This document shows, one piece after another, positions 60,065-63,201 of a stretch of DNA of 64,000 bases. Both the position numbers and the translations under genes were made by a program. The notes below the pieces were generated by a model, which did no database searches, was not told where the DNA came from, and saw only the letters and a program-made list of their open reading frames with translations. The stretch is from Opitutales bacterium (GTDB lineage Bacteria > Verrucomicrobiota > Verrucomicrobiia > Opitutales > JAJFLR01), in assembly GCA_021772565.1 (NCBI GenBank), contig JAJFLR010000030.1:1-64000 (forward strand), read 5' to 3'. How positions within the stretch are numbered: position 1 is the stretch's first letter; each line of letters opens with the position of its first letter.

Positions 60065-60073
60065 TTGTTATTT

Positions 60074-60235
60074 ATAAAATCTGCCATAATAAATTCCCGA
60101 AATAAATCAGTGTATGCAATCAATAAACGTAAGTCAGATAGATTATCACACTCTGCATGTGCAGAGTTCGCAATGACAAATAGGATTTTAATACATTGTC
60201 ATCGCGAGGAGCAACGCGACGTGGCGATCCATGAC
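60074..60235. repeat. Third copy of the MITE-like family (left end plus REP-like core; right end not found)
   Basis: ATCTGCCATAATAAATTCCCGAAATAAATCAGTGTATGCAATCAATAAACGTAAGTCAGATAGATT closely matches the reverse complement of about 35180-35250. Core TGTCATCGCGAGGAGCAACGCGACGTGGCGATCCATGA. Confidence 0.7.
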
Positions 60236-60388
60236 TTGTATAACCTCGATATAGACAGAACATTTGAGAAATATCTAATTATTCTTATACTTGAAACTAT
60301 CTGTCGCTAAATATCAAGAATTGCATATTGGTTTTACCGCTGTATAAACTTATCAAAAAATACTCATCAATACAAAAGATAAACAGCA

Positions 60389-62843
60389 ATGAGCGAGCAG
60401 GATATAATCAGGAAAATAGAAAAAAACCTCAATATAGAGCTTAAACATCTTGAAAATATAGATATCCTTGCGAAAGGTTACACCTTAACTCCAAACGGAG
60501 AGGTAAACGCTTTAAGTTTATATAATTGTAAAATAAAAAAAAACGAAACGGATTACTTCCTTTTTAAAAGAGCTCACGCAGTTACAGTCACTCGATATAA
60601 GTTATAATCAAATCAGCGATTTTTCAGTTTTAAAAGAGCTCACGCAGTTAAAGTCGCTCGATATAAGTTATAATCAAATTGAAACTCTTCCAATTTGGAT
60701 TACAGAGCTTAATTTGAAAATAACACTAGAACAATTTGACTTCGGAAAAATAATTAACTTATACGAAAATCCACTAAAAAGCCCTCCTCTTGAAATTATC
60801 AAAGAGGGTAACGAGGCAATAAAAAATTATTTTGAGCAGCTTGAAAAACAAGGGAAAGATTATATTTATGAAGCCAAATTAATGTTGGTTGGTGAACCTG
60901 GAGCAGGAAAAACCAGCTTGATGAACAAATTGTTTGATAAAAATTTTCCTGTGCCAAATAAAAATCAAAAGTCGACTTTAGGAATAGAAATTAAACCTAA
61001 CTGGGGATTTTCCTTTGACGAGAAAACCGAATTTAATGCGCATGTTTGGGATTTTGGGGGACAACAAATCCAATATATGTTACACCAGTTTTTTCTGACC
61101 TCTGATTGTCTCTATATACTATTGGCTGAAAAACGTCGTGAATTGGCCAACTTTGATTACTGGCTGAATATTTTAAATATTCTGGCTAAGAACAGGCCGA
61201 TTATAGTCCTATTTAATGAGATCAACATCGATTCAGTATCATCTTTTATATATGATGAAAAAAAATATAAGGAGCTATTTCCAAACCTGAGCTTACAAAA
61301 TCTGGATATTAACCTTTCAGACATCAAAGATGGCCGTTTTGACTTTCTGCTAAAAACTATCAAGAAAGGACTCAGTGGCCTGGAACATGTTGGTAAGCCA
61401 GTACCAGCCAGGTGGGTTGATATCCGCGATCAATTGGAAAAAGTCAGCGATAAAAAGCATATCCACATCAACGATTATTTTGATATATGCAGTGAAAACA
61501 AAGTTAAAAAAGAAAAAGACCAGTTACTGATCCTTCGTTACTTTCACCTCCTTGGTATTGTATTGCATTTTCACGATGATGAAAATCTTTGTGATACACT
61601 ATTTCTTGATCCTAACTGGACTGTCGATGCGGTTTATTCTGTCCTTACCGATAAAGAAATAGAAAAAAGCAACGGTGTACTGGATAAGATGGATATCTAT
61701 AAAATATGGAGCGCAAAAGGGTATATTTATGAAGAGAAAACAAAATTGCTTCAACTTATGTTAAAAGACAATTTTGAGCTCTGCTATAAGCTTTCTGGAC
61801 ACCACGATAAATTTATCGTACCGCTACTACTATCTCGTTTAAAACCGGAATACGAATGGGAAGAATATGATAATTTACAGTTCCGTTTTCAATATCCCTT
61901 TATGCCGAAAGGAATAGTAAGTCGTCTAATGGTCAGAATGCATGATTATATTGAACAAAATAAATTATGGCACGATGGTCTTGTATTAATCAAGGACGCT
62001 ACATTCGCACAAATCATAGAGAAGAAGCACCCAAAACTAGGATTAAAATATATAGAGATTCGCTTGAGAGGAAATAAGAGTAACCGCAGAGATCTGCTAA
62101 CCTTGATACGTGAAGAAATTAAAAATATACAAAAAATTTCTTTCCCTAATCTGCCGTACCTTGAAATGATTCCTTGTATTTGCCGGGAATGCGCTGGCCA
62201 GGCAGATCCTTACTTTTTTAATTATGAAGATATTCAAAATTACCTGAATAAAAAGAAAACCAAAATTGATTGCCGTGTCAGCACTGAAAAAGTTTTCATT
62301 TCTGAATTAATCGGCAGTGTTTTCAATATAGAAGAAATAGAATCGAGACTTAAAGAGAATATGGACAAAAGAAATATAAACATTGATTTTAGACCTAATA
62401 TTAAGGTGCATCAGGAACAAGAACAGCAGCAAAAGCAAAAGCAAGAAGTTTCACAGGAAGTAAAAGTGGAAGTCAAAAATGCCGAAGGTTTATTCAAGAA
62501 TCTCAAAGAAGATATTTTGGATGAGATTGATATAGAAATTAAAGATGAAAAAGAAAAGACCCGTATCAAAAACGATTTAAAAAAAGTAGAAAAGGCATTC
62601 AGCGAATTAAATGAAGCTGCCTGTGAAGGAAAGAAGGAACTGGAAACTGGAACCAAAAACCGATTGGAAGATTTTATTGACAAACTCGCTGACGAAAACT
62701 CTCGAATCAACAAAGCTCTTAACCTGGTTGAAAGAGGAAAAGATAAGGCGCAAAAGCTCGCCCGAGTTTATAATAAATTTGCTCCCTACTTTGCGTTGCC
62801 TTCAGTGCCTGATGTATTGCTGGGTAAAGAAAGTAACAGTTGA
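60389..62843 (+). pseudogene. LRR-Roc-COR (ROCO) GTPase, reading frame split by an apparent +1 frameshift
   Basis: Upstream frame MSEQDIIRKIEKNLNIE...LTPNGEVNALSLYNCKIKK; downstream frame FLKELTQLQSLDISYNQISDFSVLKELTQLKSLDISYNQIETLP, then GEPGAGKTSLMNKL, WDFGGQ and COR domain. Confidence 0.8.
60562..60679 (+). repeat. 66-nt direct repeat encoding 22-residue leucine-rich repeats
   Basis: TTTTAAAAGAGCTCACGCAGTTACAGTCACTCGATATAAGTTATAATCAAAT at 60562 and again, with 2 differences, at 60628. Confidence 0.9.
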
Positions 62844-62937: not shown

Positions 62938-63201
62938 ATATAGCGATTGCCATAAATGATTTCGTATATTTTAAATTTCAGGACTAATAAACAGAGTAAT
63001 TATACAGTTATCAAAAATTGAAAGCCAGATAGATTGCCACGACCTGCCCCAGCAGGTCTCGCAATGACAATCGTCATTACGTCTTCACCAGGAGCAAAGC
63101 GAGCCAACTCCACCATTGTAGCTTATGGCTACGACGGCTGGACGCGGCGATCCATGATTATTTTTTTGTTTAAACGAAAACATTTATGGCAATCGCTATA
63201 T
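62938..63201. repeat. MITE-like element with about 28 bp TIRs (ATATAGCGATTGCCATAAATG) and REP-like core
   Basis: Left ATATAGCGATTGCCATAAATGATTTCGTA; reverse complement of right end ATATAGCGATTGCCATAAATGTTTTCGTTTA. Core AGATTGCCACGACCTGCCCCAGCAGGTCTCGCAATGACA. Confidence 0.8.
63102..63141. repeat. About 40 bp hairpin repeat nested inside the preceding element
   Basis: AGCCAACTCCACCATTGTAGCTTATGGCTACGACGGCTGG, with stem GTAGC-TTATG-GCTAC and outer AGCC/GGCT, interrupts a GCG/ACGyGGCGATCCATGA core that is continuous at 60205-60235. Confidence 0.65.

What the first reader, a model, noticed from the sequence alone, without database searches (positions are those of the whole stretch)
60389..62843. 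ROCO (LRR-Roc-COR) GTPase gene split by a single-base frameshift next to an A9 and a T5 homopolymer
The 60389 ORF ends at 60607. The LRR-encoding frame that runs into the GTPase is offset by +1 and has no start of its own except a TTG inside the LRR/Roc junction. The two frames join into one logical protein (...LSLYNCKI-KK...-FLKELTQLQSLDISYN...) if one base is removed near the A9 run (about 60535-60543) or the T5 run (about 60561-60565). This could be a sequencing indel, a phase-variable on/off switch, transcriptional slippage, or true inactivation. Bacterial ROCO proteins are poorly characterised, so a slippage-controlled one would be new.
Basis: partly seen in the sequence, partly recalled or inferred. 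Interest (0 to 1): 0.75.

Follow-up and report, generated by a model that had tools for sequence, protein, structure and literature searches.

The report
Frameshifted bacterial LRRK2-like GTPase gene
A gene for a bacterial relative of the Parkinson's disease protein LRRK2 is split by one extra base in a run of nine A's; it looks like an ordinary, recent and lineage-specific frameshift in a horizontally acquired gene (or a sequence error), not a conserved genetic switch.

Summary
ORF 60389-60607 and the +1 frame (open 60537-62843) are two pieces of one LRR-Roc-COR gene. Joined at the A9 run 60535-60543, the first 100 residues align without a gap to Chlorobaculum tepidum Roco (CtRoco). Junction scoring favours the A9 run (92.0 bits) over the T5 run (77.2) and over no join (59.2). 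Pfam, a PDB sequence search and a predicted fold all place the protein with CtRoco/LRRK2.

The closest intact relatives (60-68% identical) lie in other phyla. Those with the same N-terminal cap have no A-run at the site, so a conserved, programmed slippage site is not supported. In 1.6 Mb of this genome 29 of 31 coding 9-mer A/T runs are in frame, and up to sixteen possible frame breaks were found, this one included.

Best reading: a recent single-base poly-A indel in a horizontally acquired, solitary CtRoco-type gene. The full-length product is mostly off, perhaps leaky through ordinary polymerase slippage. A consensus error in this fragmented, MAG-like assembly cannot be excluded without reads. 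Low interest.

The parts
60389..60607 (+). Upstream ORF (72 aa): conserved N-terminal cap of a CtRoco-type protein (MSEQDIIRKIEKNLNIEL...GEVNALSLYNCKI), then about 23 residues past the frame break to the stop
   Evidence: ORF list; N-terminal 48 aa match CtRoco chains 5il7/8r4b/6hlu; same cap in L133, L134, L136, L138, partly L135
60535..60543 (+). A9 run, most likely site of the single-base frameshift; its first two A's complete the TAA that closes the downstream frame
   Evidence: sequence; best junction by profile score, 92.0 bits; absent from intact relatives
60561..60565 (+).
   Evidence: junction score 77.2 bits against 92.0 for the A9 run
60537..62843 (+). Downstream +1 frame: LRRs, linker, Roc GTPase, COR-A, COR-B and C-terminal helical region, 768 codons without a stop
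   Evidence: Pfam; AlphaFold2 model mean pLDDT 81, best PDB matches 6hlu and 3dpu
60557..60679 (+). Two leucine-rich repeat units, 57-nt copies 93% identical, spaced 66 nt (22 aa); a very short array compared with CtRoco
   Evidence: direct repeat D1; Pfam LRR_4/LRR_8; alignment with relatives
60714..60716 (+). TTG, first possible start codon of the downstream frame; starting here would leave out the LRRs and keep Roc-COR
60876..61223 (+). Roc GTPase domain: P-loop GEPGAGKT at 60891-60914, switch II DFGGQ at 61050-61064, Arg equivalent to CtRoco R543 at 61134-61136, altered G4 motif NEIN at 61215-61226
   Evidence: Pfam PF08477 E 1.8e-22; alignment with CtRoco; conserved columns
61404..61832 (+). 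COR-A domain
   Evidence: Pfam PF16095 E 1.3e-40
61872..62312 (+). COR-B domain
   Evidence: Pfam PF25497 E 3.6e-34

Best explanation
This is a solitary CtRoco-type (LRR-Roc-COR) GTPase gene, probably acquired horizontally, that suffered a recent single-base indel in a lineage-specific poly-A run in the codons just after its N-terminal cap. In the sequence as assembled, translation from the conserved ATG stops after 72 codons, so the GTPase is not made, or is made at a low level from transcripts in which RNA polymerase slips on the nine A's. Shown: the split, its position, the homology, the lack of other lesions, and the absence of the tract in intact relatives. Inferred: that the indel is real in the cell, that it is recent, and that some leak-through occurs.
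For: Ungapped 100-residue alignment of the joined frames to CtRoco. A9 is the best junction. Intact relatives exist in several phyla (L132-L136; L138 intact as far as its contig runs) and the capped ones have no A-run at the site, so the tract is a derived local feature. Protein-level constraint is seen in both frames: in the linker-Roc and COR regions pN 0.14-0.30 against pS 0.75-0.93, in the cap pN 0.33-0.41 against pS 0.68-0.83 for the capped relatives. The downstream 768 codons hold no second lesion, and identities to outgroups are like those of an intact relative (L133), so the break is young or bypassed. Closest matches are in other phyla; the class and phylum samples gave at best about 31-35% over most of the protein, and the order sample one 88-residue fragment. 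Breaks of this kind are not rare: 16 candidates, this one included, in 1.61 Mb of the same genome, and L140, L199 and probably L139 and L172 are damaged among 80 relatives. Slippage at runs of nine A's is efficient in bacteria (PMC5009743), so some leak is expected.
Against: No reads, RNA or second strain were available, so the indel may not exist in the cell. No genome of the same family was returned to date the event. The unbroken downstream frame is also what a consensus error or a tolerated, bypassed frameshift would look like.
Confidence: 0.55

Rival explanations
1. The frameshift is an error of the assembled consensus; the real gene has an intact frame and encodes an ordinary Roco protein of about 817 aa.
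For: The genome is a 124-contig, MAG-like assembly without a detected 16S gene. The only lesion lies in one of the longest homopolymers of the window, and the rest of the gene is intact.
Against: 29 of 31 scored coding 9-mer A/T runs, and all but one clear case among about 230 coding 8-mers, are in frame in 1.6 Mb, so this assembly is not generally unreliable at homopolymers.
Confidence: 0.25
2. The A9 run is a phase-variable on/off switch, selected for reversible loss of the GTPase.
For: The position close to the start is typical of contingency loci (own knowledge). In the same genome three copies of a transposase differ in the length of an A8/A9 run, which shows that such tracts change length here. 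LRR plus AP-GTPase/COR proteins have been discussed as immunity-type proteins (PMC8195603), a class for which switching would make sense.
Against: A9 is short for a contingency tract and ordinary in this genome. The tract is not conserved in relatives. No mixed lengths could be shown.
Confidence: 0.08
3. Transcriptional slippage at A9 is a maintained expression control: a fixed share of transcripts is in frame and gives the full-length Roco, the rest give the 72-aa cap.
For: Runs of nine A's slip efficiently in bacteria and add up to six nucleotides (PMC5009743); a comparable case is tssM1 of Citrobacter rodentium with A11, and Y. pseudotuberculosis tssM3 carries A9 (PMC4256274). Frameshifts in an 8A repeat were readily bypassed in a drift experiment (PMC3812077). 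The downstream frame is intact.
Against: No intact relative with the cap has the tract, so there is no sign of selection to keep it. The RNA upstream of the run shows only weak structure (z -2.0). Leakiness by itself is not regulation.
Confidence: 0.06
4. The gene now makes an LRR-less Roc-COR protein from an internal start such as TTG 60714.
For: TTG 60714 lies about 50 nt before the residue where the match to the crystallised CtRoc-COR fragment begins (3dpu). CtRoco and CtRoc-COR have the same kcat of about 0.1 per min (PMC5714945).
Against: The close relatives whose 5' end is held have LRRs upstream of Roc. TTG is a weak start, and use as a start here is not supported by relatives.
Confidence: 0.06

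Closest known systems
CtRoco, the Roco protein of Chlorobaculum (Chlorobium) tepidum (PDB 6hlu, 8r4b, 3dpu, 5il7)
   Same: Same order of domains, same N-terminal cap without a gap, same C-terminal region; match E 5e-107; predicted fold closest to 6hlu and 3dpu
   Different: Reading frame split after residue 50; about 2-3 LRRs instead of a long array (LRR domain 1-411 in CtRoco, PMC5714945); G4 motif NEIN where CtRoco has NKID
Intact CtRoco-like genes of Ignavibacteriales (L132), LCP-89 (L133), Anammoxibacter (L135), Zixibacteria (L138, contig ends inside the gene)
   Same: 60-68% identical over the shared LRR-Roc-COR region; no conserved neighbours seen
   Different: Unbroken frame, no A-run at the site, more LRR units; L132 has a different N-terminal cap
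Human LRRK2 / LRRK1 (Roco proteins with kinase)
   Same: LRR-Roc-COR core (E about 1e-20; fold match)
   Different: No kinase or WD40 domain here
Transcriptional-slippage genes with disrupted frames: C. rodentium tssM1, T. thermophilus dnaX, Buchnera/Blochmannia genes
   Same: Frame junction at a run of nine or more A/T with an open downstream frame (PMC4256274, PMC5009743)
   Different: No evidence here for a slipped product or for conservation of the tract

Membership tests
Roco protein (LRR-Roc-COR group, prokaryotic) | Roc GTPase followed by COR | tested here: met
   Pfam Roc, COR-A, COR-B well above cut-off; fold match to CtRocCOR 3dpu, TM 0.83 by target
Roco protein (LRR-Roc-COR group, prokaryotic) | N-terminal LRR domain | tested here: met
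   LRR_4 and LRR_8 above cut-off, but only two or three units
Roco protein (LRR-Roc-COR group, prokaryotic) | P-loop, switch II DxGGQ and catalytic/dimer Arg (CtRoco R543) | tested here: met
   GEPGAGKT, DFGGQ, and R aligned with chain residue 548 of 8r4b, which is R543 after the 5-residue chain offset
Roco protein (LRR-Roc-COR group, prokaryotic) | G4 motif NKxD (usual in GTPases, not strictly defining for Roco) | tested here: not met
   NEIN; but 54 of 56 scored relatives also have NE here, so it is a trait of this subgroup and not decay
Roco protein (LRR-Roc-COR group, prokaryotic) | One continuous reading frame from cap to COR | tested here: not met
   frame break at 60535-60543 in the assembled sequence; it is therefore filed as a broken Roco gene
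Roco protein (LRR-Roc-COR group, prokaryotic) | GTP hydrolysis, nucleotide-dependent dimer-monomer cycle | not testable with these tools
   needs purified protein
Programmed transcriptional-slippage gene | Slippery run of nine or more A/T at the frame junction | tested here: met
   A9, best junction
Programmed transcriptional-slippage gene | Run and frame arrangement conserved among relatives | tested here: not met
   no A-run at the site in L133, L134, L135, L136, L138, L140
Programmed transcriptional-slippage gene | Slipped transcripts and full-length product | not testable with these tools
   needs RNA or protein
Phase-variable contingency locus | Tract longer or rarer than background in coding sequence | tested here: not met
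   29 other coding 9-mers in 1.6 Mb, in frame
Phase-variable contingency locus | Mixed tract lengths between cells or strains | not testable with these tools
   no reads, no second strain
Old pseudogene | Several lesions, relaxed constraint, long branch | tested here: not met
   no second lesion in 768 codons; identities to outgroups like those of intact relative L133

The most novel reading that the evidence does not exclude
RNA polymerase slippage on the A9 run sets the dose of a bacterial LRRK2-like GTPase, so that a small share of transcripts gives full-length protein and the rest only the 72-aa cap; to my knowledge no Roco protein is known to be controlled by recoding.
Probability: 0.05. 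Interest if true: 0.55.

Novelty: new member of a known kind. Interest (0 to 1): 0.2.

Why it matters
Mostly as a correction: the gene is a clear CtRoco-type member that gene callers would annotate as a short hypothetical protein plus a truncated GTPase. It adds a short-LRR member to a CtRoco-like subgroup spread across phyla, and a simple test case for whether an A9 frameshift in a large signalling protein is bypassed. If the tract were shown to be maintained and leaky, it would give a rare handle on how bacteria use Roco proteins, whose physiological roles are largely unknown (PMC6337361).

Tried and rejected
T5 run as shift site: about 15 bits worse than the A9 run. Array contraction as the cause of the shift: rejected, because the joined frame keeps the exact spacing of CtRoco over 100 residues. 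Ribosomal -1 shift on A AAA AAC: gives the third frame, which runs into a stop within about a dozen codons, so it cannot join the two pieces. A second, intact copy in the same genome: none found. A close relative in the same genus or family to date the event: none returned. First genome-contig scan with the single protein found nothing; the alignment query worked. Phage-defence library: no meaningful match. A conserved partner gene: none seen among eight close relatives. Single-sequence structure prediction was useless (pLDDT 35); the alignment-based one worked.

Full report
Observation. The window carries an ATG ORF at 60389-60607 and, one base out of register, a frame that is open from 60537 to 62843. 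The downstream frame is closed by TAA at 60534-60536, has no start before TTG 60714, and its first ATG (60882) is at the start of the Roc domain. A coding-potential survey that used no homology detects the break independently.

Identity. The downstream frame matches Pfam LRR_4, LRR_8, Roc, COR-A and COR-B above their cut-offs and matches CtRoco from the last LRRs to its C-terminus (8r4b, E 5e-107). The 72-aa upstream ORF matches the N-terminus of the same protein over its first 48 residues. When the two are joined at the A9 run, residues 1-100 align to CtRoco with no gap, so the net change is a single base and not a loss of repeats at the junction. An AlphaFold2 model built on 18 sequences (mean pLDDT 81) is closest to 6hlu and 3dpu. 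P-loop, switch II and the arginine equivalent to CtRoco R543 are present.

Where the shift lies. A profile built from the N-termini of six relatives and CtRoco was used to score removal of each base in turn: A9 class 92.0 bits, T5 class 77.2 bits, unaltered 59.2 bits. Single positions just beside the run score within about 1-3 bits of it, so the profile alone places the shift at or next to the run; a homopolymer indel is the simplest cause. The R-I pair conserved in the first LRR unit of most relatives is in register only if the shift is at or near the A9 run. A -1 ribosomal shift there would enter the third, closed frame.

Relatives. A scan of GTDB contigs with an alignment query returned 80 relatives. 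The nearest are Ignavibacteriales L132 (67%), Zixibacteria L138 (68%), LCP-89 L133 (61%), L134/L136 (60-61%) and Anammoxibacter L135 (60%). Those with the MSDLDxIxxIE-type cap are unbroken at the site and have no A-run there. In the window's own class and phylum samples, matches covering most of the protein are at best 31-35% identical; the order sample adds only an 88-residue C-terminal fragment at 57% (L217). That pattern fits horizontal acquisition. No neighbour is shared among the close relatives apart from the near-identical pair L134/L136.

Constraint and age. Against the relatives, non-synonymous differences are far below synonymous ones in the cap (frame 0) and in Roc-COR (frame +1). 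Synonymous sites are saturated, so this shows long-term constraint on both pieces and not constraint since the break. There is no other lesion in 768 codons, and Roc-COR identities to L134 and L135 (0.65-0.66) are like those of the intact L133 (0.66-0.67). The break is therefore recent, bypassed, or not real.

Base rates. In 1.61 Mb of the same genome 29 coding runs of nine A/T are in frame and two are not: this one and a transposase. Among coding 8-mers, 226 are in frame and one clear break was found on inspection (L086, an RHS-like gene). Sixteen candidate breaks of any kind, this one included, were found in the sample, some of them probably ordinary gene borders. So the assembly is not generally broken at homopolymers, A9 in a gene is common here, and frame breaks are not exceptional. 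Among the 80 relatives, L140 (frameshift in Roc), L199 (stop), L139 (N-terminus lost) and L172 (C-terminus) also look damaged.

Mechanism. The likeliest account is a single-base indel in a lineage-specific poly-A run, leaving the GTPase mostly off. Some full-length protein may still be made, because bacterial RNA polymerase slips efficiently on nine A's and adds up to six nucleotides (PMC5009743), and indels in an 8A repeat are known to be bypassed (PMC3812077); that step is inferred, not shown. An internal start at TTG 60714 would give a Roc-COR protein much like the crystallised fragment, which keeps its GTPase activity (PMC5714945), but the close relatives whose 5' end is held carry LRRs upstream of Roc. 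Without reads a consensus error keeps about a quarter of the probability.

Known or new. The gene is a broken member of the prokaryotic LRR-Roc-COR group; the frameshift is of a known, common type. The functions of bacterial Roco proteins remain largely unknown (PMC6337361); LRR plus AP-GTPase/COR proteins have been discussed as part of immunity-type systems (PMC8195603), which was not tested here.

Noticed in passing
window 61215-61226; L132-L211: The guanine-specificity motif NKxD (NKID in CtRoco) is replaced by NE(I/K)x in 54 of 56 scored relatives (NEIN here); nucleotide specificity of this subgroup may differ.
   Followed up: partly
L070:2467-2475, L213, L214: Three copies of one transposase in this genome differ at an A-run: A8 in frame, A9 shifted by one, and A9 plus G in a classic A AAA AAG slippery setting.
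   Followed up: partly
L131:2536-5327 (Acaryochloris plasmid NZ_CP071723): Another Roco gene is annotated as three ORFs; by reading the sequence, the breaks fall at an A6 and a T8 run.
   Followed up: partly
window about 60065-60280 and 62940-63170: The Roco gene is flanked on both sides by copies of short repeats dispersed widely in the genome.
   Followed up: partly
window 60557-60679: The two LRR units are 93% identical in DNA; a short-read assembly could have collapsed a longer array.
   Followed up: no
L086:9725-9732: An RHS-like gene appears broken at an 8-base homopolymer.
   Followed up: no
L140:5362-5567: Anammoxibacter carries a second close relative with a frameshift just at the DFGGQ switch II.
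   Followed up: partly
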